A stretch of 42,691 nt of DNA from a virus, in the IMG/VR virus record IMGVR_UViG_3300017971_000441, positions 1 to 42,691 of that record, one strand, 5' to 3'. Of the stretch, positions 782 to 42,481 are shown one piece after another; the first letter of the stretch is position 1, and each line of letters opens with the position of its first letter. The notes under the pieces are model-generated. The model was given only the letters and a program-made list of their open reading frames with translations, searched no databases and was not told the DNA's origin. The position numbers and the translations under genes are program-made.

Positions 782-881
782 TCCGGAAAAAGATGCTGAG
801 GTTTTTATTGCCCTCGCAGCCATAGGGTTCGGGCTGCTTTATTTGTGGTGGTGTATCGAGCGGGTGGGTGCCCCATTCTAA
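768..881 (+). CDS. Putative 37-residue membrane peptide
   Basis: A short ORF that starts at TTG and overlaps the end of the previous gene by 14 bases. It encodes an N-terminal KKNDPEKD stretch, a hydrophobic segment (FIALAAIGFGLLYLWWC) and a short tail. There is no ATG and the Shine-Dalgarno (GAGGGTGAG) is modest. Support comes from the membrane-segment composition and the continuous gene packing. It may pair with the preceding membrane protein. It could be a chance ORF. Confidence 0.4.
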   Translation: MKKNDPEKDAEVFIALAAIGFGLLYLWWCIERVGAPF

Positions 882-887
882 GCAGAT

Positions 888-973
888 CTGTGTTATTATA
901 GTGGTCGAAATTAAGAGGGAATGAATATTCCTGTGTCATTATGGTGGTCGAAATGAAGAGGGAAGGAATTTTT
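888..973 (+). repeat. Imperfect tandem duplication, 43-base period
   Basis: The stretch 888-929 is repeated with few changes at 931-973. Both contain TGTGTYATTAT, then GTGGTCGAAAT, then AAGAGGGAA. The first copy supplies the ribosome site and ATG of an 11-codon leader ORF. The second supplies the start region of the 953-1159 gene. The tandem arrangement could be a repressor operator pair or simply a local duplication. Confidence 0.6.
921..956 (+). CDS. Possible 11-residue leader peptide
   Basis: ATG at 921 sits seven bases after AAGAGGG and opens a frame reading MNIPVSLWWSK. Its TGA (954-956) overlaps the ATG (953-955) of the next gene as ATGA. This arrangement would couple translation of the downstream gene to the leader. 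The two adjacent Trp codons recall attenuation leaders, but no terminator/antiterminator pair is seen. Small enough to be accidental. Confidence 0.3.
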   Translation: MNIPVSLWWSK

Positions 974-3873: not shown

Positions 3874-3874
3874 T

Positions 3875-4208: not shown

Positions 4209-4213
4209 TTTGT

Positions 4214-4299: not shown

Positions 4300-4300
4300 T

Positions 4301-4378: not shown

Positions 4379-4379
4379 G

Positions 4380-4450: not shown

Positions 4451-4455
4451 CAATT

Positions 4456-4531
4456 TGGCGTGTAGCAAAGTTGGCAATGCACCGGCCTGTTAAGCCGGAT
4501 ATCGTAGGTTCAAGTCCTACCGCGCCAGCCA
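4456..4531 (+). tRNA. tRNA-Asn(GTT)
   Basis: Acceptor TGGCGTG/CGCGCCA, D-stem GCA/TGC, anticodon arm CCGGC-CTGTTAA-GCCGG, T-loop TTCAAGT, discriminator G and encoded CCA. Confidence 0.94.
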
Positions 4532-4536
4532 GTAAT

Positions 4537-4615
4537 GTTCCTGTGGGCCAAAATGGTAAAGGCCACGAGACTTTCAATCTCGAGATCGTGAGTTCAATTC
4601 TCACCAGGAACACCA
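4537..4615 (+). tRNA. tRNA-Glu(TTC)
   Basis: Acceptor GTTCCTG/CAGGAAC, D-stem GGCC/GGCC, anticodon arm CGAGA-CTTTCAA-TCTCG, T-arm GTGAG-TTCAATT-CTCAC, encoded CCA. Confidence 0.94.
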
Positions 4616-4623
4616 GTAATATT

Positions 4624-4699
4624 AGAGGGTTAGCTCAACTGGCAGAGCATCGGCCTTTGACGCCGATTGTTAATGGTTCAAATCCATTACCCTCTTCCA
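4624..4699 (+). tRNA. tRNA-Gln(TTG)
   Basis: Acceptor AGAGGGT/ACCCTCT, D-stem GCTC/GAGC, anticodon arm TCGGC-CTTTGAC-GCCGA, T-arm AATGG-TTCAAAT-CCATT, discriminator T, encoded CCA. Confidence 0.94.
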
Positions 4700-4700
4700 A

Positions 4701-4783
4701 GGAGGGTGCCGTCAAGGGACAAATCGGGCTTGAACCCCGTGGTGCGGTTAAACGTAGGTGTTCGATTCATCCACCCTCTGCCA
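4701..4783 (+). tRNA. tRNA-Ser(TGA), short D-arm
   Basis: Class II tRNA: acceptor GGAGGGT/ACCCTCT, anticodon loop CTTGAAC between GGG and CCC with a T-T closing mismatch in the outer stem, long variable region, T-loop TTCGATT, encoded CCA. Only 16 bases lie between the acceptor and anticodon stems and the D-stem is three pairs (GTC/GAC). Confidence 0.8.
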
Positions 4784-4800
4784 ACATTTATAGTAATTAC

Positions 4801-4887
4801 AGCGGGTTGAGGAGAGTGGTAATCCAGCCGGTTGCTAACCGGTGGCGTTAATAGCGTCCAGGTTTTCGAATCACCTACCCGCTGCCA
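4801..4887 (+). tRNA. tRNA-Ser(GCT)
   Basis: Class II tRNA: acceptor AGCGGGT/ACCCGCT, D-stem GGA/TCC, anticodon arm GCCGG-TTGCTAA-CCGGT, long variable arm (GGCGTTAATAGCGTC), T-loop TTCGAAT with a mismatched closing pair, discriminator G, encoded CCA. Confidence 0.92.
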
Positions 4888-4890
4888 TGT

Positions 4891-4967
4891 GCGGGATTAG
4901 CCGAATTGGAATAGGCAACGGTCTTAGAAACCGTAATTTGCTGGTTCAAGTCCAGCATCCCGTACCA
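4891..4967 (+). tRNA. tRNA-Leu(TAG), class I variable loop
   Basis: Acceptor GCGGGAT/ATCCCGT (G-T first pair), D-stem GCC/GGC, anticodon arm ACGGT-CTTAGAA-ACCGT, T-arm GCTGG-TTCAAGT-CCAGC, encoded CCA. TAG reads CUA (Leu). The variable region is only about five bases (AATTT), whereas bacterial tRNA-Leu normally has a long variable arm. Confidence 0.88.
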
Positions 4968-4968
4968 T

Positions 4969-5047
4969 CGTGGAGTGGTCCAGTCTGGCTTAGGACGGGT
5001 GGTTTGGAACCATCAGATCGCAGGTTCAAATCCTGCCTCCGCGACCA
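4969..5047 (+). tRNA. tRNA-Pro(TGG)
   Basis: Acceptor CGTGGAG/CTCCGCG, D-stem GTCC/GGAC, anticodon arm GGTGG-TTTGGAA-CCATC, T-arm GCAGG-TTCAAAT-CCTGC, discriminator A, encoded CCA. Confidence 0.94.
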
Positions 5048-5193: not shown

Positions 5194-5229
5194 TTGCACC
5201 ATTCCATACAAAACTGTGGTATTATGGTT
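5194..5229 (+). promoter_or_regulatory. Promoter-like element, shared with 42339-42374
   Basis: TTGCACCATTCC, nine unshared bases, then TGTGGTATTATGGTT. The second half holds an extended -10 (TG-G-TATTAT); TTGCAC is 20 bases upstream of TATTAT. AT-rich DNA precedes it. ATACAAAACT occurs at 5184-5193 and 5206-5215 (22-base period), a possible operator pair. A start near 5232 would give a leader of about 147 bases for the nuclease gene. Confidence 0.6.
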
Positions 5230-5378: not shown

Positions 5379-5978
5379 ATGACCTGGGAAAGAGTAGCAT
5401 CACCCAAAAGATTCAAGAGGTTAGTCTGGAACGAAGAGATCGAAGAGCAGGCCGTAGCAATGGCCATGGACAAGATGGCCGGAGTCAGCGGTGATAGGCG
5501 TACAAATCAGTTTGGTTATGCAGAGACAGAGAAGGCAATGCAGCGCCATTTAATGGGCCCAAGGGGTGAGTTGATGTTCAAGTCAACTTACAAACTGCCG
5601 GATTCGGTGTTTCACGATACCGGCGATTACGACTTTATGCTCGGTAAAGTACGGACTGAGATAAAGACGGCTACCGTTCACCAGTATCCTCAGATGCATT
5701 GGGATTGCCTGGTGAGCTCGTGTTGGGATGATAGGCCTCATAAGCAGCGGTGCCAGGCATACGTCTTTCAGAAGGTGTTTATGCCTAAAGATCGCAGCAC
5801 AGTACATGACGCCTGGGCTGTAGGATGGATTGGATCAGAGGAATTTTGGAGTCGCGCACAGAAGCTATCTAAGGGTACGAAGCGTCAGTACGGTGAGATT
5901 AAGGATGCGAATGCATATATGATCCCGATCTCAGCGCTTTACGACATGAAGTACATAAAAGGATGGCTTATGCAATGA
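5379..5978 (+). CDS. PD-(D/E)XK-type nuclease
   Basis: A 199-residue protein. GPRGELMF (Glu64), then GDYDFMLG (Asp83 and Asp85), then RTEIKTA (Glu94-x-Lys96) and a following strand (DCLVSSCW) match the alpha-beta-beta-beta core of PD-(D/E)XK endonucleases, which cut DNA with Mg2+. ATG at 5379 follows GAAGGAGATCAAA; the TTG at 5364 lies within that ribosome site. It is the first gene after the tRNA array and has its own promoter-like element and structured leader. The role could be host DNA degradation, recombination or packaging; the sequence does not decide. Confidence 0.65.
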   Translation: MTWERVASPKRFKRLVWNEEIEEQAVAMAMDKMAGVSGDRRTNQFGYAETEKAMQRHLMGPRGELMFKSTYKLPDSVFHDTGDYDFMLGKVRTEIKTATVHQYPQMHWDCLVSSCWDDRPHKQRCQAYVFQKVFMPKDRSTVHDAWAVGWIGSEEFWSRAQKLSKGTKRQYGEIKDANAYMIPISALYDMKYIKGWLMQ

Positions 5979-6480: not shown

Positions 6481-6671
6481 AGCTACCACCAGTCGATATG
6501 CCGCCGACATGCCCATATTGCTTCAATGATATGGAGCCGAAAGTCTATATAATTCAGGGGGATGGGATCTACTTTGAGGTCATTCACGCCTGGAAATGCA
6601 GTTGTGAGGATACCCTAAGGATAGAGAATGATTGTAGAAACAAGCAAATTGCCGGAGATCAGGAGTCCTGA
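6471..6671 (+). CDS. Small zinc-ribbon protein preceding terminase
   Basis: A 66-residue protein with CPYC near residue 14 and CSC near residue 43, separated by a beta-hairpin (PKVYIIQGDGIYFEVIHAWK): a zinc-ribbon layout. It overlaps both neighbours (10 bases upstream, 44 bases with terL). The position just before the large terminase is where a small terminase subunit usually sits, but it is too small and lacks a helix-turn-helix, so I do not call it one. Confidence 0.6.
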   Translation: MEIKLPPVDMPPTCPYCFNDMEPKVYIIQGDGIYFEVIHAWKCSCEDTLRIENDCRNKQIAGDQES

Positions 6672-8256
6672 GTATTATACCGAGTTAAAACGGCAGCTTA
6701 AACTGGCAGGCATGCCACCGACCGAGATAGATGCATACATCGAGCTTCATAAAAAATTTGCATCTCAGCGGTGGCGAATAGATAATCTGTATCAGATAGT
6801 AGATGCCGATGGTAACCAGATCCCATTTCAAATGAACTACGCCCAAAAGCTACTATACCTTGGGATGTGGTACTGCAATATCATCCTTAAATCTCGCCAG
6901 CACGGTATCACCACCTTTATGTGTCTGTTATATTTGGATATCTGCATGTTCAACTCTAATACGCATGCGGCTATTATCGCCCATAACAAGGATGATGCCG
7001 AGGACTTTTTCCAAAAGAAGGTGAAGTTCGCCTACGATAACCTTCCGGAACAATTAAAAAATCAGATGGGTGGCAGCAAGATCTCGAGCAAACACCTGTC
7101 CTTTAAAAACGGATCCTCCATCAGGGTGACGACGTCTGGCCGGTCTGGTACCTACCAGTTGATCCATATCTCTGAGCTCGGGAAGATCTGCGCCAAGTAT
7201 CCCTTGAAAGCCCAGGAGGTTATCACCGGTACCCTAAATGCTATCCATGCCGGCAATATCGTGACGATCGAATCCACGGCAGAGGGGCGCGAGGGTAAAT
7301 ATTACGAGATGGTCAAGACCGCCAGAGCCTTAAAGGATATGAGGTCTAATCTCGGTAAGAAGCAGTACAAGTTTTTCTTTTTCGGGTGGCCAGAGAATGA
7401 TCTCAATCGACTCGAGCCGAGCGGGACAGCTACCCCTGATAGGTTGAAGGATTATTTCGAAGAGCTCGAGGTTAAGCACAGGATCCACCTGACAGAAGAG
7501 CAAAAGGCATGGTATGTCGAGACAGAGTCGACTCAGGGTGAGTTTATGTTTCAAGAGCACCCGTCGACTCCGGAAGAGGCCTTTTATAAATCTATGGAGG
7601 GTGCCTACTACCAGAAACAGATGCGAGCCGCCAGGAAGCAGGGCCGAATAGGTAGGGTCCCTGTCGTCGAGCACCTGCCGATAGACACATATTGGGATAT
7701 TGGGTATCATGATGAAACAGCGATCTGGTTCGCTCAGAACGTCGGCCGTGAGGTCCACCTGCTACATTATTACGAAAACTCTGGTGAGGGCTTCCCCCAT
7801 TACCGTGATTATGCGATAGAATGGGCTAAGGAGCACAAATCTCGGATAAGGCTATGGCAAGGCCCTCATGACTTGGCTCAGCACGTTTGGGCGCTGGATA
7901 AGAGCGTCTGGCAGCTATGTAAGGAAGCTGGCGTTGAATTCGATATTGGCCCTCGTGTATCAGAGACGATGCAGATTGAATCCGTCAGGCTATTCCTGCC
8001 GATCTGTTATTTTGATGAAGCCGGCTGTGAGCGGGGGATAGATTGCCTGGATTCCCTGCGTAAAGAATGGAATGATAAGCTCGGCTGCTTCAAAGAGAAG
8101 ATCCTGCATGATTGGGCCAGCCATGGTGCCTCAGCATTTAAAGAGCTCGCTTTGAAGGGAGACATTGCCGGCGCGGTCCCGCAGCCGCCACCGAAAGCCT
8201 CGCCGGAGCATGTAGAGAGACAGAAACAAATGGCAAGCCCTAAGGGATGGACATAA
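6628..8256 (+). CDS. terL: Terminase large subunit
   Basis: A 542-residue packaging motor. The ATPase domain has Walker A LKSRQHGITT (Lys88-Thr96), a classical terminase variant, and a Walker B-like strand ending in HISELG (Ser182-Glu183, where Asp-Glu is usual). The nuclease domain follows, with WDIGYHDET (Asp357) on an RNase H-fold first strand and later WQGPHD and conserved acidic positions. The C-terminus is Pro-rich and basic. ATG at 6628 lies inside the preceding gene after AAGGA. It cuts concatemers and pumps DNA through the portal encoded at 8529. No small subunit was identified. Confidence 0.88.
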   Translation: MIVETSKLPEIRSPEYYTELKRQLKLAGMPPTEIDAYIELHKKFASQRWRIDNLYQIVDADGNQIPFQMNYAQKLLYLGMWYCNIILKSRQHGITTFMCLLYLDICMFNSNTHAAIIAHNKDDAEDFFQKKVKFAYDNLPEQLKNQMGGSKISSKHLSFKNGSSIRVTTSGRSGTYQLIHISELGKICAKYPLKAQEVITGTLNAIHAGNIVTIESTAEGREGKYYEMVKTARALKDMRSNLGKKQYKFFFFGWPENDLNRLEPSGTATPDRLKDYFEELEVKHRIHLTEEQKAWYVETESTQGEFMFQEHPSTPEEAFYKSMEGAYYQKQMRAARKQGRIGRVPVVEHLPIDTYWDIGYHDETAIWFAQNVGREVHLLHYYENSGEGFPHYRDYAIEWAKEHKSRIRLWQGPHDLAQHVWALDKSVWQLCKEAGVEFDIGPRVSETMQIESVRLFLPICYFDEAGCERGIDCLDSLRKEWNDKLGCFKEKILHDWASHGASAFKELALKGDIAGAVPQPPPKASPEHVERQKQMASPKGWT

Positions 8257-25960: not shown

Positions 25961-28900
25961 ATGTCTGATTTCTATGATAAATTTGTCGCAGACAATCTGC
26001 GAGACGATGATCCTGTAGCTCCACAATCTCCTACCGGAGCAATCCCTACACCAGAATCGCCAAGCGGTCCTGATGCCTATGACCAGTTCGTCGCTGACGT
26101 ATCGGACGATATCGAGGTGCCATGGATCCAGACAAAGCCGAGGCTTGAAAGGGCTATCGATGCTGGTCTATCCCAAATGCCGCTACCTATCCGTGCCGGC
26201 GTTAAGGCTGTAACTGGTGTTCGTCCTACCTCTGAGATTTACGGTGGCAAAGATCTAAAGAGCAGAGCTCAAAAGGCCTTCCTTCCAGAATCATTACAGG
26301 GGATTGAGGTAGAGGCTCCGACCATAGAAACCGTCAAGCAGATGGTTAGATCACCATTCTGGCTTGGCAAGGGTTTTATGGATATTGCCGGATATGATCC
26401 AAATAAGCCTGCCGCTATACCTACCGAGTCCGATAATGTATGGGATCAAATTCAAGACATGGCAGTCCGTGGTGCTGATGCATTCGCTGACATAAACTAT
26501 AAAGCCCTTGAAAAGATTACAGAATCTCCCAATCTAAAAAGCGATCTCGGATATGCATTGCGCCGAGAGGAAAAGAATAAGGCCGAGAACTACCTATCGA
26601 ATGTGGTAGGCCTCGCTCCGCAGATCCAGGCCCAGGCGCTGGCCCATCTTCAAGGTGGTAAGCTACTGTCCGGAGCCATGATGTTTGTCAATATAGCCGG
26701 TAACTCTTACGAGGAAAACCTTTCTAATGGGGCCTCTCCAAAAGAGGCCATGGCTGCCGCCTTAGCGAATGCCGGTATTCAGGCACCGATGGAGGCTCTG
26801 TCTTTTGGATGGATGCTAAGGGCCCCAGGTATTGGGTCCGGTATAAAGCGATTTATTGCTTCGAGGATTTTGGGTGCATTCACAGAAGGTGTAACTGAAA
26901 CCCTGCAAGGCGCTCCAGAAGAGGTCACGGGCACCTTGGCCATGCCGGATGAACGCAAGAAATTCCTTGAGGCCGATGTAAGGACTCAGGCAAAAATGCT
27001 TGCTGATATGGCATGGGAAGGTGTTAAGAAGGCGACTCCTGAGGGGCTCGCTGCCGCACCATACGGCCTACTGCTTGGGGGCGCTGACGCAAAACCAGAG
27101 AGCGCTAAGACCGAGAAGAGAGTCGGTAAATTCCGGAAAGCCTATGACATGCTCACCGGTAAGAGGGATGAAACTGGAGATCTTCAAAGGGTTACGTCTC
27201 CGAATGAAGCTGCCGAAATACTTGATCGTGGCATTAAAGAGGCTGCCGCTGAACAGGGTGCTATCCCTGAGCCAGGTGGTCCTCCACCGCTGCCGGCGAC
27301 TGAACCACCACCGCTACCAGTAACCGAGCCTATTATCCCGATTGAAGATATTGAGTTAGGTCCGCTCCGGACGCCAGATGAACGCCAAGGATATATAAGG
27401 GGCGTGGAGGGCGAACAGCAAACCGAAGCTGAAGCCAGGCAAGCTGAGATCGACCGGACCATGGGCGAAGAGACTGTCATCACCGAGCCGCCGCCGGCTA
27501 TCGAAGAGCCTATTGTATCTGCAGAAATGACTCCACAGGAAGAGGCGCAGGCAGTTATCGATGCCACTCCTGCGGACGTCGAGCAGGTCCCTGCAGACCG
27601 CGCCAAACGTGCGGCCAGGGAGCGCCAGAAAGAGATAGATAAACAGGCAAAGAAAAAGGAAGCCCCACAGGAAACCAGGGAGGAGATCATAGAGTCCCTT
27701 TTGGGTGAGGGTAAGAGCAGGCTCGAGGCCGAAGAGATCGCCAATACGATCATTGCCAGAGAAGGCAAAACAGAAAAAGCTAAAAAGCCTACGGCACCAA
27801 AAGCTAAAGAAAAAATCTCTCCACCAGGGAAAAGGAATTTTTTTCAGTTTCCGGATGGCACCACAATAATGGGAGCCACGTCCGGAGAGATTTACAATAA
27901 GGCCACCCCTGAGCAGCGGAAAATGATGGAAGAGGGTAAAGCCAGGGAGGGGTTTGTAAATGCATTCGGGAAAAAGGTTTTCCGCAATGCCACCACAGTA
28001 TCTGCCAAAGGACCTAAGAAGGTCACCACCGCGAAACAGCTTCATGAAGCAGCCGCCGAAACAGATCCAAACCCATCATACAAGGAAATAAAAGACGGCA
28101 CCTACAGAAAGGGGGAAGTCGAAATCCAGGGCCTTCCGATATCGATCGAGAACGCCAAAGGGTCCACCAGGAAAGAGAACGTGCCACCAGGCAAGAAACC
28201 TTCCTGGCGTGTCCGTATGAAAGCCGTATATGGTTTTTTTAAAACCGGCCGCAAGGCAAAAGACGGCGAGGGTGTTGATGTGTTCGTCGGTGACGACGTA
28301 ACCTCCGAGAATGTTTACATTATTGATCAGGCGAATGAGGACGGGACCTTTGATGAACCAAAGGTAATGCTTGGCTATAAGACCAGGAAGCAGGCTCAAA
28401 TGGCATACCGTGCTCATTACCCAAAGGGATTCGACTTTACTCAGATGCGGGTCACCAAAAAGTCCATGCCTGAATTTAAGGAATGGCTGCAAAAGGGTGA
28501 TCCTAAAAAGCCTCAAGCTGTAGAGGAAACTGTAAAGCCGCCGGTCAGGAAAACCCTGGCCAATATCAAAGAGCATTACATCAAAATGTCTCAGCGCTGG
28601 CCAGAGGATATGCAGCTTACCGAGGACGATTTTGATCTGATCAAACCAGAGAATGTCAATAATGGAGAGGCTATCGTCAGCTTCATGAAGACTGTTTTCG
28701 GCTTTGAGAATGTTGTGTTTTTTGAAACCGATAACGCATTCCTGAACAATACGAATGGCAATACAATCCGGATGCGGGACATAGATCGTGAGAACGGATT
28801 TATTTTTATCAATACCAGGAACGAAACTCCAGGCCTCCAGGTCGCCGGCCACGAGATGGGTCACGAGATAGAAAAAACAATGCCAAAGAAATACAAGGTG

Positions 28901-31900
28901 TTGAAGGCCCTGATGTGGAGGATGAGAAATGAAGGCGACTACACGAGATTCCGTAATCGCAAACTACCGTTTTACACTCGGCAGTTGGCCGCAAAGAAGG
29001 GTATTCCGGCAGATGAACTAAATCCTGCAGATATTGAAGACGCTGTATTCGACGAATACGTTCAAGAGTTTCTCGGATCATCCCTGTTCGATGAAAAGTT
29101 TTTGGGCGAGGTCATGAAAGAGGACCAAACCCTGTTCGAGAAAATCGTCGGCATGGTCAGCGAAGTTATTAAGAAAATGGGCGACGCTATCCTCGCTCAG
29201 CCAAATAAATTTGATCGTGTCTATTTTGACGATCTTGCTACCGCTCAAAAGCTCATGGCCACCATGGTGCGCCAGTATAACCAGTATCGCGCTGGTGAGT
29301 ATACTGCCGGCATGGGCGAATTTGATGTGTATGCAAGAGAAGTTTTGGATAGAATCAGAGCTCCGAAGCCAGAGGCAGATCTCATGGATTCACCCCTGGC
29401 GCAGAATATCGGTGCGGCTGGCCTACCAGTTGGAGCAGCCGGTAACCCTCAGATTTTATTCGATGTTAAAGAGCGCGGGTGGGATGTTGATTTTGAACAG
29501 GAAGAGTTCGGCGTTGTCAATAATCGGCTCAGCAAAGAGCTCGAGGCCTTTGAGGTTCTGTTTGGGCCTACCATGAAAGCCGTCGAAGTACCTGGAAAGT
29601 ATGTAAAAAATAAGAGGGAACTTACCAGGTCGATCACAACCTATGATTTACTGGATGAAATTTACAGGGTGATTGACGATGGCCAGGTTGCTACGTTGCT
29701 CGATAAAACCAAAACCATCGAAGAGATTGCTGATTCAAAAGGCCTAAAGGGTAAGGAGCGCAAACGGTTCCTTGATCATCTTCACAGCCTGCGGAACGGC
29801 AAGATGTACGATATTGAATCCAAGACACAAACCCTTGGAAATAATGGGAAAGCTGGTATGTCGGCAGACTTCTTACTGGCCACCTGCCACCCAACAACTC
29901 CGTGTAAAGAATGTTATGCGGCCGCTGCCATGATCAGAATGAGCGCCGTCAAAAAAGCGCTTAGGTCGACCATTCATGTTTTGACAGATCCTAAGGGATG
30001 GGCCAAGATTGTGGCTGCCGAGGTCATGAAAAAGAAAAAGACCGAGCTACCTTTTGTCCGTATGCTCGGATCCGGCGACCTGATCACAGACGAACAGGTT
30101 GAGGGTATGAATGAATTGGCCAAGCTGCTTGACCGGCCGATCCATATTTTCAGCCGGCACCATGATATGCTTAAAAAGTTGAAGTCTCAGCCTAATGCTC
30201 CGTTTATTAAAATGGGATCCATCGATGCCGATCTTTACAAATTCTACGGTCCTAAAAAGCTGGCCGAGAATATGAAGAAGCACGGTATAGCGAATGCCTG
30301 GTTAATGACAGACGCGAGCGAGATAAAGGCTATCGAGGCCCTGAATAAAAAGGGTGCCCTACAGCTTGTCCTGGCTGCCGATACAAAGCTGCATGATCAG
30401 CTTCCTGCAGAGCTCCGTAAAACCGGATGCCCATGCGACTCAGGCGAGCGCACATATTTCTATAGCTGCAAACAATGCGCCTTGTCAGAATCTGGCTGTT
30501 TCATGGCGTTTAGCGAATATGGGATCGATAAGGACGGAAAGCCATGGAAGATCATGGATCCGAAGGCACCGACCGACCTGACTCCGATCACAGCCTTTGT
30601 CGAGGGTAAGGAAAAATCCAAGTCCCTCGGTGAGGTTTATATCGGCCGCCTGCAGAAGTCTATCGATTTGATCAGGCTGAATATCAGGAAGTTCCTCGAG
30701 GCAGAATTCATCCGTGAGAATTTTGATCCGAATAAGAAAACTCTACCACCGTATGGGAAGCAGAAAAAAGGCAAACCGATGCCGGAGAAAAAGCCGGCTC
30801 AGCCTAAGATCGCAATCAAAAATCTCCATTACCCTGATGATGTGAAATACGTCGACAATGTCGATGCGGCGAATTCCTATATCGGAAACCTGCTCGGCAT
30901 GATCGAGGACGCTCGAAAATTCCAATCCTCCCTGCTACCTGGTGGTGAGATCCAAAATGAGATCCGCTACGAAGAGGGGAAAAAGATAGACGTCGAGCCA
31001 GACTTCGATGTTATCACAGATCCGGAGCGTATCCCGAAAAAGACCGTGAAGGCCTACAAGCTATTCACCCAAAAGGACGGTGAACTATATCCGCTTTTTG
31101 TAAAGGCGAATGAGACTGTGCCTATGGGTAAATGGCTGGCCGCCGACGTGGGCCCAATGGTCGGAGGTAAGGTTAAATCCAAGATAGGTCAACTGGCGTT
31201 CAGACCAGGATGGCATTCTGGAGACATGCCTGTCGCTACCCATATCGGAGGCAAGTCCGATAACCGGTTAAAGAAACCAAACTACCGACCGGATAACCAG
31301 GTATGGGCTGAGGTCGAGGTATCAAACGACGTTAATTGGCAGAAAGAAGCGAATAAGCGAGCATCCGTTACAAAACAGGGTAAGATCATCCCGAGAACGG
31401 CTCAGATCTCTGACCAGGTACCAGAGGGTGGCCATTACCGGTATAAGACAAATCCGAATATGACCGGAGAATGGTTGATCAGCGGTGAGATCAAAGTAAA
31501 CCGGATCCTTACCGATGAAGAGGTTAAGGAAATAAATGGTAAGCTCGGGGTTGCCGACCTCCCCCGTAAAGACGAAGCTGTCGTGGAGTTCAATGCAATA
31601 GAGCTTGGCGATACCATAGAAATAACAAAGGCGCAGGCAGATGAAATAGAAACCTTTTACGATTCACAGATCGAAGATGGAGCTATCTCCGTAACAAAGA
31701 AGGGTAGCAAGTATCTCCTGTCCGGTGAACTGGATAATCTCGCACAATATATAGCCGACGATTACCATCCTGAATATGGGATTGAAACGGTCAGCAAGCC
31801 CCTTATGCGGTCCATGAGATCGTTAGGCAAAAAGATCGAGAAGGCTGCCAAGGCACCTCAGGCTGAGGAACGGCCTGTGGTCGAAGACTTGATAACTAAG

Positions 31901-34900
31901 CCGCTCCGTGACTTTGCTGCAGATCTTAATGAAAAGATCCGAGACGGCGCGAATGAAATGAGGGAGAAGGTCGACGCCTACGACGGGTGGCAATTCGAAG
32001 CCGGCCAAAAGGTCAAGTCAAAACAGACCGGAAAAATGTACCGGATTACCGGCCGGCTATGGGATATGCGAAATGACCGTCCTCAGTATTTCTATGAATC
32101 CCTGGATGGTGACGAAAAGGGTACCTTTATAGGTGAGCGAGCTCACGAGAATATGATTCCGGTCGCTGGACCTATTGGGGTTGCGCCTATGCCAGAGTTT
32201 GACTTCATGCCAGAGGATGCTACGGTTATCGAGCGTGAAGCAATAGCGCAAGAGCTTTACCATCCGGTAAAGACTGCAATCGATAACAAGTTTGGATTTA
32301 CAGACAGGGCTACTGATACCTGGGAGGCCGCGCAAGATGATCTGCAGGATTTCATAGACGATGGTACCACAGAGTCGGACCTTCTTGACTCCATCATAGA
32401 TGATGCTGTCGACGGGTATAAAACCTTTTCCGAGTTTGTAGACTCCAGGCTCGAAGATATCGCTCCCATGACCTGGGATGCGACACGGGAGGACCGGCGC
32501 GAAATAGCTGATAAGGCCGAGCGGCTTATTATCAAAACGATAAACAGGGAGATCTTAAATCCTGAGCAAAGGGACGGTGCGTATGATACTGCCATGGATG
32601 AATTAAACGATTTTATCTATGACGACAATACGGACCTGTCTACCCTTGACGCGATAATGAAGGATTCCGGATACGATAGCTTTAAAGAATTTGTCGACGA
32701 AACCTGGTTTGATATGAATACCGTCGACGACGTTCCGATCATTCCTGGCTTTGATACCATGGAGCCGATTACTCAGGACGCCAAAGAGGTTATAGACGCC
32801 AAGATCGGCCGTACAGACCAGCCACTCAGGGAGAGAACCGCTAAGGCATGGAATTCATTCTGGAAAAATAAAGCCACGCTGGTGGTCGACAAGTTTGCTC
32901 CGGTTAAGAAGCATTTCGGAGAAGGCGTTGAGTACATGATGCACAGGGGTATTCCTGGTGCACCGACCTCGATGCTCGGACAGCTTCTGCATGGAAAGTT
33001 GAAATGGAATGCGGCCGGCGACGTTCTGACTGTCGACACAAAGGGTGAGGGTTTTATCCCATGGGTCAAGGGCCTTAAAAAAGATGGTGAGAAATTTTTT
33101 TACTGGCTGGTTGTCAAGAGGGCTGAGGCCCTGGAGAAAGAGGGCCGAGAGAAACTTCTCGGTAAATCAGATCGTGATAAGATCATGGCCTGGGTTGGCG
33201 ATCCAAAAGGGAATAAATCCTGGGATGAACTTAACAAAGAATTCCAAGCGTTTAATGATGCAATCCTCGATATCGCGCAAGAAGCCGGCCTTATAGATCC
33301 GGCCTCAAGAAAACTTTTTCAGCAGGAATTTTACATTCCGTTTTATCGTGTATTCGAGGATGAAGAGACTGCGATTGAGTTTGTAAAGAGCCCGAAGCAG
33401 GGATCCAAATTTCTTTCCGCGCAGATAAAACGGCTCAAAGGGTCCGAGAAAAAGATTGGCGATCCCTTTGAAAATATTATGAAAAACTGGAACCACCTTG
33501 TCGTCGAGAGTATTAAGAATAAATCTCGTGGTGATGCATTCCGGACTGCGGAGAGACTCGCCCTGCCGAGCGGGTACTACGGCCTTGACGAAGACGGTAA
33601 TGAAGTTGAGAAGCCCCTTGTCGAAGAGGTCCAATGGAAGGATACCGTTAGGTTTAAGGGGGTTGGCAAGGCCACCTTTATCGAGCAGAAAACGGGAGAG
33701 CCGGTCCTCGGGTTTAAGGATAAGGGTAAAACAAGGTTCTACCGAGTGAATGATCCGGAGCTTTTCGCAGCCATGAGCTTGATGCGGAATGTGACCGCTG
33801 ACAATATGCTCGTGAATGCTCTGAGATATCCGAAGCGGTGGTTGACCATGGGAGCCACCTTTGGGCCAGCTTTTAAGATGGCAAACTTCCTGCGGGATAC
33901 CCTGCATACCGGAATGATCTCGAATGACTTTATTCCATTCCTTGATTCGCTCCGTGGTGTTGGCAAGATCCTATTCAACGACAAAGAGTATGTCGAGTAT
34001 CTGGCCTCCGGCCACGCCTTTGCAGGATCATATGTAAGGGCCGATGATCCTAAGGCTGTGTCGAAGCACCTGAAAGGGGTTACTCAGAAACAGATGCGCG
34101 GTAAGGTATGGAACGTCGTGAGCTCACCATGGAGGCTATGGGAGGCGATCGGTGAGGCCTCTGAGAACGCCGCCAGGGTACAACTGTATAGCAACCTTAG
34201 GAAGAAAGGTAAAACGCAGCTTGAGGCTTCTTTCGCTGCTCGAGATATCATGGACTTTCAAATGTCTGGAACGTCCGATACCCTAAACTTTTTCACCTCG
34301 GTGGTGCCGTTCCTGAATGCCAGGATCCAGGGCCTCTATAAAATGGGCCGCGCTGCCAGGGAAAACCCCAAAGTATTCGCCGGCAAGACTCTTATCCTGG
34401 CCGCTATGTCCCTGGCCGCCTGGGCTGCGTATGCCGACGATGATCGATATAAAGAGCTCGAGGATTGGGAGAAATGGCAATACTATAATTTCTGGCTTGG
34501 AGATTGGCATATCCGGATCCCGAAGCCTTTTGAAACGGGTGTTATTGGATCTACTCTGTGGACAGCCACAGCCGATGCCGCTAAGGGGAATGAACCATGG
34601 ACATATGTGCTAAGGACTATCGGACATGCGGTGATGGACACATTCGCATTCAATCCGGTGCCTCAGGCCGCTATCCCTATCGTCGAACAGGTATTTAATA
34701 AAAGTATGTTCACCGGCAGGCCGATTGAAGGTCAGCGGATTTCCAAGTTATCTCCAGGGCTTAGGGCTGAACCGTGGACATCTGAGACTTTCAAGATGCT
34801 CGGTGAATTAATAGGTACGCCGCCAAAAAGAACAGAGTCCCTTGTCAAAGGATACTTTGCGACTTATGTTAATCTGGCCCTATTCTTTACAGATCCAGCA

Positions 34901-35314
34901 GCCAGATGGTTGATGGACTATCCGGAGCGTCCGACAAAACGGGTGGATGATTACCCGATGATAGGTCGATTTTTGAGGCAGGCCGACAATCCTCGTTACA
35001 CCAAGTATATTAGTAAGTTATACGACATTACGAGGCAAGCCGACCAGCTTTACGCAGACGTGAAGCACCTGAACGCGATCGGTGATTATGAGGCAGCCAG
35101 GGCGATCAAAGAAAAGCATCGTAAAAAGCTGTCCATGCGTAAGCGTTTCCATAAGGATCGCAGGAAGTTGACGGAGCTCAACCGTAAAATCAGGAAGGCT
35201 TGGCTAAGCGAAACTATGGACGGTGACGAGAAAAAAGCCAAGATCGATAAATGGACCGGACAGAAAAATGAGATCGTCCGTAGGGTTATGCAAATGTACG
35301 AAAATAAGAAATAA
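25961..35314 (+). CDS. Giant polyvalent (ejected) virion protein, 3117 residues
   Basis: Two short N-terminal repeats (DFYDKFVAD, DAYDQFVAD) and an amphipathic Ala-rich region lead to: an inorganic-pyrophosphatase-like phage domain (about 705-846); a metallopeptidase motif GHEMGHE (His964-His968); a Cys-rich gp88-like domain (about 1300-1515) with ATCHPTTPCKECY, RMLGSGDLIT and GCPCDSG...CKQC; an RPGWHSGDMP block (about 1690-1865); two acidic repeats (about 2110 and 2203); and an LPD38-like C-terminal region (from about 2315) with a hydrophobic segment near 2810-2826. Such polyvalent proteins are thought to enter the host with the DNA and counter defence. Domain names are from memory; the peptidase motif is directly visible. 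It fills 22 percent of the window. Confidence 0.82.
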   Translation: MSDFYDKFVADNLRDDDPVAPQSPTGAIPTPESPSGPDAYDQFVADVSDDIEVPWIQTKPRLERAIDAGLSQMPLPIRAGVKAVTGVRPTSEIYGGKDLKSRAQKAFLPESLQGIEVEAPTIETVKQMVRSPFWLGKGFMDIAGYDPNKPAAIPTESDNVWDQIQDMAVRGADAFADINYKALEKITESPNLKSDLGYALRREEKNKAENYLSNVVGLAPQIQAQALAHLQGGKLLSGAMMFVNIAGNSYEENLSNGASPKEAMAAALANAGIQAPMEALSFGWMLRAPGIGSGIKRFIASRILGAFTEGVTETLQGAPEEVTGTLAMPDERKKFLEADVRTQAKMLADMAWEGVKKATPEGLAAAPYGLLLGGADAKPESAKTEKRVGKFRKAYDMLTGKRDETGDLQRVTSPNEAAEILDRGIKEAAAEQGAIPEPGGPPPLPATEPPPLPVTEPIIPIEDIELGPLRTPDERQGYIRGVEGEQQTEAEARQAEIDRTMGEETVITEPPPAIEEPIVSAEMTPQEEAQAVIDATPADVEQVPADRAKRAARERQKEIDKQAKKKEAPQETREEIIESLLGEGKSRLEAEEIANTIIAREGKTEKAKKPTAPKAKEKISPPGKRNFFQFPDGTTIMGATSGEIYNKATPEQRKMMEEGKAREGFVNAFGKKVFRNATTVSAKGPKKVTTAKQLHEAAAETDPNPSYKEIKDGTYRKGEVEIQGLPISIENAKGSTRKENVPPGKKPSWRVRMKAVYGFFKTGRKAKDGEGVDVFVGDDVTSENVYIIDQANEDGTFDEPKVMLGYKTRKQAQMAYRAHYPKGFDFTQMRVTKKSMPEFKEWLQKGDPKKPQAVEETVKPPVRKTLANIKEHYIKMSQRWPEDMQLTEDDFDLIKPENVNNGEAIVSFMKTVFGFENVVFFETDNAFLNNTNGNTIRMRDIDRENGFIFINTRNETPGLQVAGHEMGHEIEKTMPKKYKVLKALMWRMRNEGDYTRFRNRKLPFYTRQLAAKKGIPADELNPADIEDAVFDEYVQEFLGSSLFDEKFLGEVMKEDQTLFEKIVGMVSEVIKKMGDAILAQPNKFDRVYFDDLATAQKLMATMVRQYNQYRAGEYTAGMGEFDVYAREVLDRIRAPKPEADLMDSPLAQNIGAAGLPVGAAGNPQILFDVKERGWDVDFEQEEFGVVNNRLSKELEAFEVLFGPTMKAVEVPGKYVKNKRELTRSITTYDLLDEIYRVIDDGQVATLLDKTKTIEEIADSKGLKGKERKRFLDHLHSLRNGKMYDIESKTQTLGNNGKAGMSADFLLATCHPTTPCKECYAAAAMIRMSAVKKALRSTIHVLTDPKGWAKIVAAEVMKKKKTELPFVRMLGSGDLITDEQVEGMNELAKLLDRPIHIFSRHHDMLKKLKSQPNAPFIKMGSIDADLYKFYGPKKLAENMKKHGIANAWLMTDASEIKAIEALNKKGALQLVLAADTKLHDQLPAELRKTGCPCDSGERTYFYSCKQCALSESGCFMAFSEYGIDKDGKPWKIMDPKAPTDLTPITAFVEGKEKSKSLGEVYIGRLQKSIDLIRLNIRKFLEAEFIRENFDPNKKTLPPYGKQKKGKPMPEKKPAQPKIAIKNLHYPDDVKYVDNVDAANSYIGNLLGMIEDARKFQSSLLPGGEIQNEIRYEEGKKIDVEPDFDVITDPERIPKKTVKAYKLFTQKDGELYPLFVKANETVPMGKWLAADVGPMVGGKVKSKIGQLAFRPGWHSGDMPVATHIGGKSDNRLKKPNYRPDNQVWAEVEVSNDVNWQKEANKRASVTKQGKIIPRTAQISDQVPEGGHYRYKTNPNMTGEWLISGEIKVNRILTDEEVKEINGKLGVADLPRKDEAVVEFNAIELGDTIEITKAQADEIETFYDSQIEDGAISVTKKGSKYLLSGELDNLAQYIADDYHPEYGIETVSKPLMRSMRSLGKKIEKAAKAPQAEERPVVEDLITKPLRDFAADLNEKIRDGANEMREKVDAYDGWQFEAGQKVKSKQTGKMYRITGRLWDMRNDRPQYFYESLDGDEKGTFIGERAHENMIPVAGPIGVAPMPEFDFMPEDATVIEREAIAQELYHPVKTAIDNKFGFTDRATDTWEAAQDDLQDFIDDGTTESDLLDSIIDDAVDGYKTFSEFVDSRLEDIAPMTWDATREDRREIADKAERLIIKTINREILNPEQRDGAYDTAMDELNDFIYDDNTDLSTLDAIMKDSGYDSFKEFVDETWFDMNTVDDVPIIPGFDTMEPITQDAKEVIDAKIGRTDQPLRERTAKAWNSFWKNKATLVVDKFAPVKKHFGEGVEYMMHRGIPGAPTSMLGQLLHGKLKWNAAGDVLTVDTKGEGFIPWVKGLKKDGEKFFYWLVVKRAEALEKEGREKLLGKSDRDKIMAWVGDPKGNKSWDELNKEFQAFNDAILDIAQEAGLIDPASRKLFQQEFYIPFYRVFEDEETAIEFVKSPKQGSKFLSAQIKRLKGSEKKIGDPFENIMKNWNHLVVESIKNKSRGDAFRTAERLALPSGYYGLDEDGNEVEKPLVEEVQWKDTVRFKGVGKATFIEQKTGEPVLGFKDKGKTRFYRVNDPELFAAMSLMRNVTADNMLVNALRYPKRWLTMGATFGPAFKMANFLRDTLHTGMISNDFIPFLDSLRGVGKILFNDKEYVEYLASGHAFAGSYVRADDPKAVSKHLKGVTQKQMRGKVWNVVSSPWRLWEAIGEASENAARVQLYSNLRKKGKTQLEASFAARDIMDFQMSGTSDTLNFFTSVVPFLNARIQGLYKMGRAARENPKVFAGKTLILAAMSLAAWAAYADDDRYKELEDWEKWQYYNFWLGDWHIRIPKPFETGVIGSTLWTATADAAKGNEPWTYVLRTIGHAVMDTFAFNPVPQAAIPIVEQVFNKSMFTGRPIEGQRISKLSPGLRAEPWTSETFKMLGELIGTPPKRTESLVKGYFATYVNLALFFTDPAARWLMDYPERPTKRVDDYPMIGRFLRQADNPRYTKYISKLYDITRQADQLYADVKHLNAIGDYEAARAIKEKHRKKLSMRKRFHKDRRKLTELNRKIRKAWLSETMDGDEKKAKIDKWTGQKNEIVRRVMQMYENKK

Positions 35315-39144: not shown

Positions 39145-39406
39145 TTTTCGCTTTCCTCTCTGCCTTACGGAGCAAGGCATCATATCGGTTTTTATCTGCC
39201 ATTGATCCGGATAGCTGAGTCTTCCCACGCTGGTGAGTCTGTGTTTTCTTTACGGGTTTTTCCTCACCGGTTTCAGGATCCTTCTCCATCACATAGTAGG
39301 TGGAGTTAAACACCCGCCGGCCTTTTAGCCTGGCCTTGGTATCCTCATTCGCCTTTTTCCGGCGCTCCTTATAATCCTCGAAGGATTCATCTGGTCGTCG
39401 CTCCAT
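39119..39406 (-). CDS. Small highly charged protein
   Basis: A 95-residue protein almost wholly Lys, Arg, Glu and Asp (EDYKERRKKANEDTKARLKGRR...ALLRKAERKAKNEEKATEH), with only a short YYVME stretch between. It overlaps the RecT-like gene stop (TAATG) and the HAD start by 26 bases. Probably an unfolded nucleic-acid or protein binder; not recognised. Confidence 0.6.
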   Translation of the reverse strand: MERRPDESFEDYKERRKKANEDTKARLKGRRVFNSTYYVMEKDPETGEEKPVKKTQTHQRGKTQLSGSMADKNRYDALLRKAERKAKNEEKATEH

Positions 39407-41046
39407 TAATCTAACTCCTTTCCAGCGGACTTCTTTTTGGCGAGTAGCTCGACCACATCATCTACCCATATCCTGGCGGCGTTGTCGCTGGCTACCATTT
39501 GGCCGAAGCCATGTTTCTCCCGAATTTCTTCGCAGGTATTCGGGTATGTTTTTCGCAGGTGCAGGAGTCGGGTCCGGATCTTATCTTTCATCTTGCTTTC
39601 GATATCATCAAGGTCCGGACCTTTCTCCTGGGCTGTGCGGACGGGCTCAGTTTCTTGGGGCTCTTCATCTGCTTCCAGACCACCAGGGAAAGGTTTTTTA
39701 ATCAGGCGATCCCATTTGGCCACCAGCTTACCGTGAGACTCTTCTGATAAGGAGTCAACAATCTCAGGGTTATTGGTTACCCATTCCTCGAGATCGGCTG
39801 CAGACATATGGTTGAACAGCCGGATCTCTGCGGCCGGAGTCATTTTTGGCTCGGGCTCGACGACGGGATCCTCTTTGGCGACCTCTTCCTCGGCAGACTT
39901 TTCGAATTCTCGCTCTATCTCAGCGCCCTCTGAATCGGCTAACTCTTCGTCTGAAACCCTGCGGATCTCTTCGACGTAATCGCCAAAGGTCTTTTCGGCC
40001 TTCTCAATATGTTTTTCGATATAAACGACAACGTCTCCAGGTCTGAGATCCTGGCGCTCGCAAACTATATTGATCCAGTCGACGACATTTTTCAGACCAG
40101 AATTAAACTTGATACCGAGGTTCAATAGAGTTTCATTACCGGCCGCCCAATCCGGAGCCTTCCATCCGGTCCTGCCGGCGACGACATTGCCGGCTTCATC
40201 CTTCACAACGTCGGGCTCAGGGGCTTCCTCTTCCGGCTCGACCTCAGCCTCTACCACGGGCTCGGCTTTATAGGCCGCCATTAATTCCTTGGCATTGTCA
40301 CCGACATATTCAAGGAATGCTTTCGGATCGGCGTCGTTAGCCTCCATAGTTTTTATAAGGTATTGAAAAAACTCAGGTTCCATATCATCTTCTTCAAAGA
40401 TAAACTGGAGAGCCTCTTCAACCTTTTCATTAGACATGACTTCTGGCTCTGACGTATAGGATCCGTCGGCACCCTGGACCATATTAACGTCGTAATCCAT
40501 GGCTTCCTCGGCAACCTTCAAACCTTTCAGGGCACCAGGGAGAGCGTCACGGATAGCCCATGAGCGAGCTCGCATCTGCAGCATGCGCTTTGGATATTTT
40601 TTCCAAATATCCTTATTCCAGAGATCTGCGTTAATGGCATCACCAATTGAGAAATCCCTGACAACATCTTCACGGTCCTTGAGCTTGATGGTGCATACGG
40701 CCTTGAAATTCTTATTGATTTTGTCACCATCCCACATATCGCCGTCGAAGGTTTCAATACAATCGATGAACTCTTCGCAATTCTGGACCAGGCCGAGAGC
40801 AGCGTCACCCCATACTGATGGCATGCCGTTGATCACGGCTATGTTCTGCAGGGCTGCGGTGCGGTTCAGCCCGAGGGACAAACCCATATCCCAGGCGACG
40901 ATGACCTTTTCTGGAGAATTGACATAAGTCTTTGGAACCATTCCAGAGTTTGAGAATCTATTGGCCAGCCACCATAGGCCTTCAATGTCGCTCGGTGCGA
41001 TCTCACCCTTTTCGACCGGTATTGCCGGCAAGTTTTTGTCTGACAT
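39406..41046 (-). CDS. RecT-like single-strand annealing protein, long acidic C-terminus
   Basis: A 546-residue protein. Residues about 1-200 carry the RecT-type core: WWLANRFSNSGMVP, VIVAWDMGLSLGL, NIAVINGMPSVWGDAALGLVQ and PKRMLQMRARSWAIRDALPG. RecT proteins anneal single-stranded DNA made by a partner exonuclease, here at 41764-42336. Residues beyond 230 are a very acidic, partly helical extension (VEAEVEPEEEAPEPD and more); RecT is normally about 270 residues, so the tail doubles it. ATG follows AAAAGGAGTTAATT. Confidence 0.75.
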   Translation of the reverse strand: MSDKNLPAIPVEKGEIAPSDIEGLWWLANRFSNSGMVPKTYVNSPEKVIVAWDMGLSLGLNRTAALQNIAVINGMPSVWGDAALGLVQNCEEFIDCIETFDGDMWDGDKINKNFKAVCTIKLKDREDVVRDFSIGDAINADLWNKDIWKKYPKRMLQMRARSWAIRDALPGALKGLKVAEEAMDYDVNMVQGADGSYTSEPEVMSNEKVEEALQFIFEEDDMEPEFFQYLIKTMEANDADPKAFLEYVGDNAKELMAAYKAEPVVEAEVEPEEEAPEPDVVKDEAGNVVAGRTGWKAPDWAAGNETLLNLGIKFNSGLKNVVDWINIVCERQDLRPGDVVVYIEKHIEKAEKTFGDYVEEIRRVSDEELADSEGAEIEREFEKSAEEEVAKEDPVVEPEPKMTPAAEIRLFNHMSAADLEEWVTNNPEIVDSLSEESHGKLVAKWDRLIKKPFPGGLEADEEPQETEPVRTAQEKGPDLDDIESKMKDKIRTRLLHLRKTYPNTCEEIREKHGFGQMVASDNAARIWVDDVVELLAKKKSAGKELD

Positions 41047-41048
41047 AA

Positions 41049-41774
41049 TTAACTCCTTTTATTTGCGAAACTGGTTACGGGCACCTTAACAATCTCGATA
41101 CCCTTGATATCATTGCCTCGGCTTCCGGCCTTATATGCGGCGGCCAGGGCCTCTTCATTCAACTGCAGGTACTTTGGATCAACATCAGCCAGGGATCCGG
41201 TTAATTTAAACTCCGGTTTATATTTCAGGCCGGCAGATCCAGTCTCAGCCTGAACCCTTTTGACCGGTGCTGCGGCTGGCTGAGAGGCCACAGGCGGGGC
41301 GATCTTCTGTTTTGTGAGCTTGGCTGCGGCTTTGGCTGCCTCTTCCTCAGCAGCCCTGCGAGCGGCCTCTTCCAGGCGTTTTTTCTCGGCCTCTCTATGC
41401 AGTACCTTTGACAGCTTGATGCCCATGGTTTTCTCGACTTCTCTCAGCGCCTTAACGATTGGCATTAAGACGGAGTCGATCTCTTTACCATGGCGAAGGT
41501 ATGGCTCCTTATAGGCCTTCCGCTTTTTGTCGAATATAGTTGCCAGCTTCTTTGCTTGGGCTCCCCTCTCGGTGGCGTCGTCTTTATTCGCCGAGGTTGC
41601 CCGAAATGAATTAGCCTCTTCCTGCATGGCCTCGACTTTAAGCATGACGTTTTTCCCAAAAAGGGCCAGATTCTTGATCGAGAAATCCCTATCATCTACG
41701 ACAGCATCTGCCATTTTAGAGACGACCAGATCGTGCCTCTCTCGTTTTTTGGTTACGTTCAGATCAATATCCAT
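41049..41774 (-). CDS. Coiled-coil protein of the recombination operon
   Basis: A 241-residue protein: long helices (residues about 20-150), an Ala/Glu coiled coil (EAEKKRLEEAARRAAEEEAAKAA), a Pro-rich hinge and a C-terminal globular part ending YKAGSRGNDIKGIEIVKVPV. Such proteins commonly lie between the exonuclease and annealing genes in phages. ATG at 41774 follows TTGGAGGACAAT; the TTG at 41786 is within the ribosome site. It overlaps the exonuclease end by 11 bases. Confidence 0.65.
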   Translation of the reverse strand: MDIDLNVTKKRERHDLVVSKMADAVVDDRDFSIKNLALFGKNVMLKVEAMQEEANSFRATSANKDDATERGAQAKKLATIFDKKRKAYKEPYLRHGKEIDSVLMPIVKALREVEKTMGIKLSKVLHREAEKKRLEEAARRAAEEEAAKAAAKLTKQKIAPPVASQPAAAPVKRVQAETGSAGLKYKPEFKLTGSLADVDPKYLQLNEEALAAAYKAGSRGNDIKGIEIVKVPVTSFANKRS

Positions 41775-42336
41775 ATTGTCCTCCAAAAAAGTTGTGGTTT
41801 ACCAGGGCGTTACAGAATACCTGCCAATGAAATTCTGTTTGCTCCGGTTCAAAAATATCGACCAGCGGTGGCAGGTGTGGGTTATTGTTTTCACCCCTCA
41901 GCCGAGCCGTCGCGCACCGATCAATCGGTAGTCCAGTATTGGATTCGACCAGGTGTTTATATGAAGCCGTTTGTGGGCCCCAATACTTATGCCTGGCCTG
42001 CGAAGTTTTCCAGTCCCAAAGAATGATCCAGTTATTATAGGTTTCATCCATCTTGGCGACCAGATCCGGCTGGCCACAATAGCCGAGATCTTCATCAACG
42101 TACCGGACCTCAACGACAAAAACCTCCAAAATATGTGGCCTAAGCCTAAGAAATGATTCATAATATGTAGGCCAGCGGTCCTGTGGCATGACCGGTAATC
42201 CTAAGAGGTTTGCGCTACATTGGCCGTGCACCGCAGATCCGCGCTCTGAATGGATTGGCTTGAACCATTTTTTATCAATCCAATATTCAAGGATCTTGGT
42301 GGACGACGGGTAACCTGTGTCGTTTTTGTAAGGCAT
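41764..42336 (-). CDS. Cas4/RecB-type PD-(D/E)XK exonuclease
   Basis: A 190-residue nuclease: RGSAVHG (His37), YCGQPDLVA (Asp91), WDWKTS (Asp108-Trp-Lys110) and QTASY (Q-x-x-x-Y, residues 122-126) form the full RecB-family motif set. It would resect DNA ends for the RecT-like protein. The ATG (42334-42336) has no upstream ribosome site; the -10-like element ends seven bases before it, so translation from a leaderless mRNA is likely. Confidence 0.8.
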   Translation of the reverse strand: MPYKNDTGYPSSTKILEYWIDKKWFKPIHSERGSAVHGQCSANLLGLPVMPQDRWPTYYESFLRLRPHILEVFVVEVRYVDEDLGYCGQPDLVAKMDETYNNWIILWDWKTSQARHKYWGPQTASYKHLVESNTGLPIDRCATARLRGENNNPHLPPLVDIFEPEQTEFHWQVFCNALVNHNFFGGQYGY

Positions 42337-42338
42337 GG

Positions 42339-42374
42339 AACTATACTACCACAACTATGCCAGGAATGGTGCAA
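42339..42374 (-). promoter_or_regulatory. Promoter-like element of the recombination operon
   Basis: On the minus strand: TTGCACCATTCC, nine bases, then TGTGGTAGTATAGTT. It is the same as the element at 5194-5229 at 25 of the 27 conserved positions. Extended -10 TG-G-TAGTAT ends at 42343, predicting transcription start near 42336, the A of the exonuclease ATG. A/T-rich DNA lies upstream. Confidence 0.6.
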
Positions 42375-42394: not shown

Positions 42395-42424
42395 TTGACA
42401 AAAAAATAAAAAAAATGCTAAAGT
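42395..42424 (+). promoter_or_regulatory. Plus-strand promoter for the right-end gene
   Basis: Perfect TTGACA (42395-42400), 18 bases of almost pure A/T, TAAAGT (42419-42424). Divergent from the minus-strand element and separated by 20 bases. The expected leader before the ATG at 42482 is about 50 bases. Confidence 0.6.
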
Positions 42425-42481
42425 TTATTTTCAGGTGACCGATACAGTTTGTAACGCAACAAAAAACCAACGGAGGGAAAA

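What the first reader, a model, noticed from the sequence alone, without database searches (positions are those of the whole stretch)
42334..42374. Duplicated 36-base promoter-like element, one copy predicting a leaderless exonuclease mRNA
The minus-strand sequence at 42339-42374 and the plus-strand sequence at 5194-5229 share TTGCACCATTCC, an unconserved nine-base gap, and TGTGGTA-x-TAT-x-GTT. Both are followed by genes for PD-(D/E)XK nucleases. In the minus copy the extended -10 ends seven bases before the ATG and no ribosome site exists, so transcription should begin at the ATG itself. Shared elements with a variable centre suggest either a phage-specific early promoter or binding of a dimeric regulator.
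Basis: partly seen in the sequence, partly recalled or inferred. Interest (0 to 1): 0.65.

Follow-up and report, generated by a model that had tools for sequence, protein, structure and literature searches.

The report
Phage promoter class, two leaderless transcripts
The repeated element is one of at least eight copies, in two related uncultured phages, of a promoter type in which a fixed nine-base box replaces the normal "-35" signal and which in two cases ends right at a gene's start codon; next to it, running the other way, sits a promoter that looks made for the bacterium's flagellar sigma factor.

Summary
The shared core is TGCACCATT-N13-TGn-TAnnAT. It recurs in a complete relative (phage A, circular 59,886 bp, 75-80% identical in matched stretches): five sites score 29-36 bits, against 15.7 for the next site and at most 12.7 in simulated sequence. 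The window holds three sites (42339-, 5194+, and a weaker one at 869+), all orthologous to sites in A. The box-to-TAnnAT spacing is always 16 nt. No -35 hexamer lies in register, whereas the extended -10 (TGn) is invariant. This looks like a lineage-specific, activator-type promoter class, working like T4 MotA promoters but with a different box and spacing. Predicted +1 is the A of ATG for the exonuclease (both phages) and a NinB-like gene (phage A), so leaderless transcripts are predicted. Scans of viral contigs and about 85,000 prokaryote genomes gave only scattered hits elsewhere. The activator is unknown; phage A encodes one sigma-region-4-like protein and no sigma region 2. The same divergent intergenic region (42419-42445+) carries a second family matching the FliA/sigma28 consensus TAAAGTTT-N11-GCCGATAA: five in phage A (two perfect), one in the window, none in 664 kb of control DNA. 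Early genes therefore appear flagellar-sigma driven, perhaps the more surprising result.

The parts
42365..42373 (-). box TGCACCATT in place of the -35 element (class II promoter, exonuclease copy)
42343..42351 (-). extended -10: TGG then TAGTAT
42336..42336 (-). predicted transcription start = A of the exonuclease ATG (leaderless)
   Evidence: geometry; not measured
41764..42336 (-). PD-(D/E)XK-type exonuclease ORF, 190 aa
   Evidence: PHROG phrog_298 E=1.7e-16; 87% identical orthologue with the first 13 residues invariant
39406..41046 (-). RecT-like annealing protein ORF downstream on the same strand, probably the same operon
   Evidence: PHROG phrog_561 E=1.1e-28
5195..5203 (+). box TGCACCATT (class II promoter, terminase/structural operon copy)
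5217..5225 (+). extended -10: TGG then TATTAT; predicted start about 5232, leader about 147 nt
5379..5978 (+). first ORF after the leader, 199 aa, putative nuclease (D...ExK signature only)
6628..8256 (+). terminase large subunit downstream of the 5194 promoter
869..877 (+). box TGCCCCATT, third class II copy in the window
   Evidence: 25.2 bits leave-one-out; orthologous to phage A 41191(-)
891..899 (+). extended -10: TGT then TATTAT of the third copy
42419..42445 (+). divergent FliA/sigma28-type promoter TAAAGTTT-N11-ACCGATAC (14 of 16)
   Evidence: consensus from PMC2859248 and PMC7286023
42482..42691 (+). start of the divergent ORF (complete on contig G001; HELAH metalloprotease-like motif, family not tested)

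Best explanation
The element is a copy of a lineage-specific phage promoter class (class II) made of a host-type extended -10 (TGn-TAnnAT) and a fixed upstream box TGCACCATT that occupies about -37 to -29 and replaces the -35 hexamer. Shown by sequence: the class, its fixed spacing, its conservation at orthologous places in two phages, and its position ahead of the exonuclease/RecT genes, a NinB-like gene, a secreted-protein gene, a small-gene/RtcB cluster and the terminase/structural genes. Inferred: host RNA polymerase with its main sigma factor opens the extended -10, and a DNA-binding activator, most likely phage-encoded and bound to the box as an asymmetric (monomeric) site, supplies the missing -35 contact, so that the class switches on after the early genes. 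At the exonuclease and NinB-like genes transcription should start at the A of the ATG, giving leaderless mRNAs. Genes of the replication side carry a different family matching the flagellar sigma28 (FliA) consensus. A candidate activator is the single sigma-region-4-like protein of phage A; that assignment is only a lead.
For: Exact double occurrence. Complete relative: 123-bp terminal repeat, circular 59,886 bp. Five TGCACCATT in phage A, about 0.46 expected for a 9-mer at this length, all with TAnnAT at exactly +16; spacing histogram 7 of 8 perfect boxes at 16. PWM gap: 29.5-35.5 bits for five sites, next 15.7 (the reverse strand of one of them), simulated maxima 9.9-12.7; leave-one-out at least 21. 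Orthologous pairs keep box, spacing and -10 while flanks diverge. No -35 in register (at best 2 of 6 matches to TTGACA at spacers 16-18, by inspection). Only this phage group has more than one copy in viral contigs, and an accidental off-by-one-spacer pattern gave 49 scattered hits with no contig hit twice. Genome contigs gave 4 scattered hits. Leaderless: +1 falls on the ATG for exo and NinB-like, 4 nt before it for a third gene; exo coding from codon 1 (differences by codon position 26/14/79; the first non-synonymous change is codon 14; next in-frame start at codon 33-35). The phage has no sigma region 2 (control positive) and one region-4-like protein.
Against: No transcript data exist. Extended -10 promoters can work without any activator, so the box could be an operator or an unusual -35 for a host sigma. 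The NinB-like copy lies inside the end of the upstream gene and that gene could be translated by coupling. The effective sample is small: two related genomes, five independent loci. About 20-23% of longer ORFs also lack a clear Shine-Dalgarno by my simple test (50 of 65 and 29 of 36 have one), and phage A has a GTGA at 12 nt. In the window phage the 869 copy has one box mismatch and a tandem duplication.
Confidence: 0.66

Rival explanations
1. The box is the operator of a repressor or other regulator (possibly dimeric, using ACCAT...ATGGT) laid over an extended -10 promoter that the host polymerase can use alone.
For: ATGGT-like bases follow the hexamer in most copies (G31 5/8, G32 5/8, T33 7/8); the reverse strand of one site scores 15.7 bits.
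Against: The box is nearly invariant and asymmetric, the downstream half is loose; centres are 26 bp apart (about 2.5 turns); the class spans recombination, tRNA-region and structural modules rather than one switch region.
Confidence: 0.15
2. The whole element is the -35/-10 pair of a host alternative sigma factor or of a host lineage with an unusual main sigma, with no phage protein involved.
For: Fixed 16-nt spacing like a -35/-10 pair; the same phages appear to borrow another host sigma (FliA-like class).
Against: A TGCACCATT-N11-TGTGnTATnAT scan of 84,980 species found only 4 unrelated single hits, no more than chance would give; the hexamer is sigma70-like.
Confidence: 0.15
3. The two window copies are a chance or mobile duplication without promoter function.
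Against: Eight copies, fixed spacing, orthologous conservation and a clear score gap.
Confidence: 0.03

Closest known systems
T4 middle promoters (MotA box plus sigma70 -10, sigma appropriation)
   Same: A phage-specific box replaces the -35 element upstream of a host-type -10; TGn is present in about half of T4 middle promoters (PMC2988021) and in all copies here.
   Different: Box is TGCACCATT, not (w)(w)(w)TGCTTtA; it ends 16 nt before the hexamer instead of 12 +/- 1; MotA and AsiA homologues were not searched for specifically; unrelated phages.
FliA/sigma28 promoters (TAAAGTTT-N11-GCCGATAA)
   Same: The divergent neighbour at 42419-42445 and five sites in phage A match it, two of them 16 of 16.
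   Different: They lie in phage early/replication-side genes; class II itself does not match this consensus.
Leaderless '-10 next to the ORF' genes (e.g. Deinococcus-Thermus, PMC12340547)
   Same: A -10 element directly adjacent to the ORF and no ribosome site.
   Different: Here part of a phage promoter class with a distinct upstream box; the other class II genes have leaders from about 4 nt to 150 nt or more.

Membership tests
T4 MotA-dependent middle promoter | MotA box (w)(w)(w)TGCTTtA | tested here: not met
   Box is TGCACCATT in 7 of 8 copies; consensus from PMC2988021
T4 MotA-dependent middle promoter | Box 12 +/- 1 bp upstream of the -10 | tested here: not met
   Always 16 nt
T4 MotA-dependent middle promoter | sigma70-type -10, often with TGn, and no -35 | tested here: met
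   TGn-TAnnAT in all eight copies; no TTGACA in register
T4 MotA-dependent middle promoter | MotA and AsiA proteins | tested here: inconclusive
   No MotA or AsiA hit among the proteins scanned, but not every phage A protein was scanned and no dedicated model was run
sigma28/FliA promoter (site 42419-42445 and phage A family) | TAAAGTTT-N11-GCCGATAA | tested here: met
   5 sites in phage A (0, 0, 2, 2, 2 mismatches), 1 in the window (2 mismatches); 0 in 664 kb control
sigma28/FliA promoter (site 42419-42445 and phage A family) | Transcription requires FliA | not testable with these tools
   Host unknown; in three of the five phage A sites, and beside the 42419 site, a TTGACA allows an overlapping sigma70 reading
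Leaderless mRNA | -10 hexamer 6-7 nt before the start codon, no Shine-Dalgarno | tested here: met
   exo in both phages and NinB-like in phage A
Leaderless mRNA | 5' end mapped to the start codon | not testable with these tools
   Needs 5'-end mapping

The most novel reading that the evidence does not exclude
These phages run a two-step programme on borrowed polymerase: early genes from host flagellar-sigma (FliA) promoters, so that infection is tied to cells expressing flagella, then a second class in which a phage factor reading TGCACCATT (perhaps the lone sigma-region-4-like protein) redirects host polymerase, with leaderless messages for recombination genes.
Probability: 0.3. Interest if true: 0.8.

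Novelty: new variant of a known kind. Interest (0 to 1): 0.62.

Why it matters
It turns a two-copy curiosity into a defined, testable promoter class with exact predicted start sites, gives a conserved candidate for leaderless phage messages, and suggests a phage lineage whose first wave of transcription depends on the host's flagellar sigma factor, which would link infection directly to host motility. Searches of the open-access library found no report of sigma28-driven phage early genes, but that library is limited.

Tried and rejected
Rhizobium phage RHph_TM3_14A, ctYwJ313 and Methanosarcina virus MetMV (25-34% protein relatives) were fetched as possible comparators: the FliA-type pattern was absent or weak there, class II was not scanned in them. 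A portal-alignment search for more relatives used poor patterns and found none new. One viral-contig scan was run with the spacer one base too long; kept only as a control. AlphaFold models of the region-4-like protein (pLDDT 50) and of the 5379 protein (pLDDT 33) were too poor for fold searches. No structured RNA other than tRNAs by Rfam. A marginal site at window 2689 (17.6 bits, 6 of 9 in the box) has no counterpart in phage A's top list and was not counted. A phage RNA polymerase search found nothing, but its control did not ring either.

Full report
WHAT IS THERE. The pattern TTGCACCATTCC-N9-TGTGGTA-N-TAT-N-GTT is present exactly at window 5194-5229 (+) and 42339-42374 (-), with no other match at up to 3 mismatches and none in 100 shuffles. 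The window is a partial virus record of 42,691 bases carrying terminase, portal, tRNAs, RtcB, exonuclease and RecT genes.

RELATIVES. A scan of viral contigs for the core returned only IMGVR_UViG_3300028840_004913 (103,145 b). It contains the window (99.99%, positions 59,908-102,604, reversed) plus a second, 75-80% identical genome in its first 60 kb. That second genome is independently held as IMGVR_UViG_3300017963_000053, 60,009 b with a 123-bp terminal repeat, i.e. a complete circular phage of 59,886 bp ('phage A'); IMGVR_UViG_3300017971_000453 is a 41.8 kb piece of it. The 103-kb contig joins phage A and the window phage at an identical stretch of up to 144 bp and is probably an assembly chimera, so the early region of the window phage itself is not known.

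THE PROMOTER CLASS. In phage A the 9-mer TGCACCATT occurs five times (about 0.46 expected), always followed by TAnnAT after exactly 16 nt; in the 103-kb record 7 of 8 perfect box/hexamer pairs at any spacing of 10-39 fall at 16. Eight sites (five in A, three in the window phage including the weaker 869+) give a matrix in which all box positions but the fourth (A, once C), the T and G of TGn, and T, A, A, T of the hexamer are invariant. Five sites in A score 29.5-35.5 bits; the next is 15.7 and is the reverse strand of one of them; simulated genomes reach 9.9-12.7; leave-one-out scores are 21-36. The three window sites are orthologous to three in A, with the elements kept in diverged flanks. 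No TTGACA-like hexamer lies 16-18 nt from the -10, so the box stands where the -35 should be (about -37 to -29).

WHERE IT IS. In phage A the class precedes (1) exonuclease/RecT (560+), (2) a NinB-like gene (53578-; phrog_72, E=1.6e-4), (3) a secreted 334-aa protein (49353-), (4) a small gene followed by the RtcB and tRNA region (41191-), and (5) a 199-203 aa ORF with the terminase and structural genes (38408-). It is therefore not an early-only promoter.

LEADERLESS STARTS. With +1 placed 7 nt after the hexamer, the predicted start is the A of the ATG for exonuclease (both phages; the six intervening bases differ, AGTTCC versus GTTCAC, but their number does not) and for the NinB-like gene; the 41191 gene would have a 4-nt leader. 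The exonuclease ATG is the real start as far as sequence can tell: a stop codon (TAG, inside the -10) lies in frame just upstream in the window phage, residues 1-13 are invariant with synonymous changes from codon 3 on, differences fall 26/14/79 on codon positions, and the next in-frame start is at codon 33-35. Most longer ORFs in these phages have a Shine-Dalgarno (50 of 65, 29 of 36) by a simple test. The NinB-like copy overlaps the end of the upstream gene, so translational coupling cannot be excluded there.

LINEAGE-SPECIFIC. Exact scans for relaxed forms of the pattern in viral contigs find multiple copies only in these three records; single hits elsewhere appear mostly not to be promoters and those contigs show at most weak further matches, not a family. 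A scan with the spacer one base too long, made by mistake, gave 49 single hits and serves as a control. In 84,980 prokaryote genomes the pattern has 4 unrelated hits, no more than chance would give.

WHO READS IT. Phage A has no sigma region 2 (control positive) and one protein with a sigma region-4-like helix-turn-helix (46042-46680 of the 103-kb record, Sigma70_r4_2 E=6e-8; only such hit). An asymmetric 9-bp box at the -35 place is what such a domain could read, but nothing here tests that; the structure model was poor. By analogy with T4 middle promoters (PMC2988021) an activator is the best reading, with a different box and spacing, so it is not a MotA promoter.

A SECOND CLASS NEXT DOOR. 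The divergent side of the same intergenic region carries TAAAGTTT-N11-ACCGATAC at 42419-42445 (+). Phage A has five such sites, all on the minus strand, two of them 16 of 16 to the FliA/sigma28 consensus TAAAGTTT-N11-GCCGATAA (PMC2859248, PMC7286023), all with the two halves at one spacing, none in 664 kb of unrelated control loci, each 18-48 nt (from the predicted start) upstream of an ATG, most with an evident Shine-Dalgarno. They head genes of the replication side and the small genes upstream of it. A TTGACA inside or near several of them also allows a sigma70 reading. If FliA dependence is real, early transcription of this lineage depends on the host flagellar sigma factor; the open-access searches found no precedent, which is weak evidence of absence.

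CONFIDENCE (my own estimates). Promoter class real: about 0.93. Leaderless exonuclease message: about 0.8. Activator-dependent through the box: about 0.65; activator phage-encoded: about 0.55; the region-4-like protein is that activator: about 0.3. FliA-type family is sigma28-driven: about 0.55.

Noticed in passing
window 42419-42445 (+); phage A (G003) 56953-, 56402-, 54574-, 527-, 58964-: Promoter family matching the FliA/sigma28 consensus TAAAGTTT-N11-GCCGATAA, upstream of early/replication-side genes; two copies match 16 of 16, and there are none in 664 kb of control DNA.
   Followed up: partly
IMGVR_UViG_3300028840_004913 (103,145 b), around 59.9-60.0 kb: Contig appears to be two related phage genomes joined at an identical stretch of up to 144 bp; likely an assembly chimera.
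   Followed up: partly
window about 889-975 (+): Imperfect tandem duplication of about 43 bp covering the -10 and start region of the 869 promoter copy, absent from phage A.
   Followed up: partly
L017:6042-6680 (-), phage A early region: 212-aa protein with a sigma-region-4-like HTH, a possible second HTH near its C-terminus and a Cys-rich N-terminus; no relatives in the phage collection.
   Followed up: partly
window 42567: Window lacks 6 bp (in frame) present in the 103-kb record, in a T-rich tract of the divergent metalloprotease-like ORF.
   Followed up: no
window 3796-5047 and 1596-2855: Eleven tRNA genes and an RtcB RNA ligase gene just upstream of the structural operon promoter; phage A has a smaller set (five tRNAs).
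   Followed up: no
window 25961-35314 (+): 3117-aa protein with minor-head/DarB-like and other domains (PHROGs), probably injected or virion-associated.
   Followed up: no
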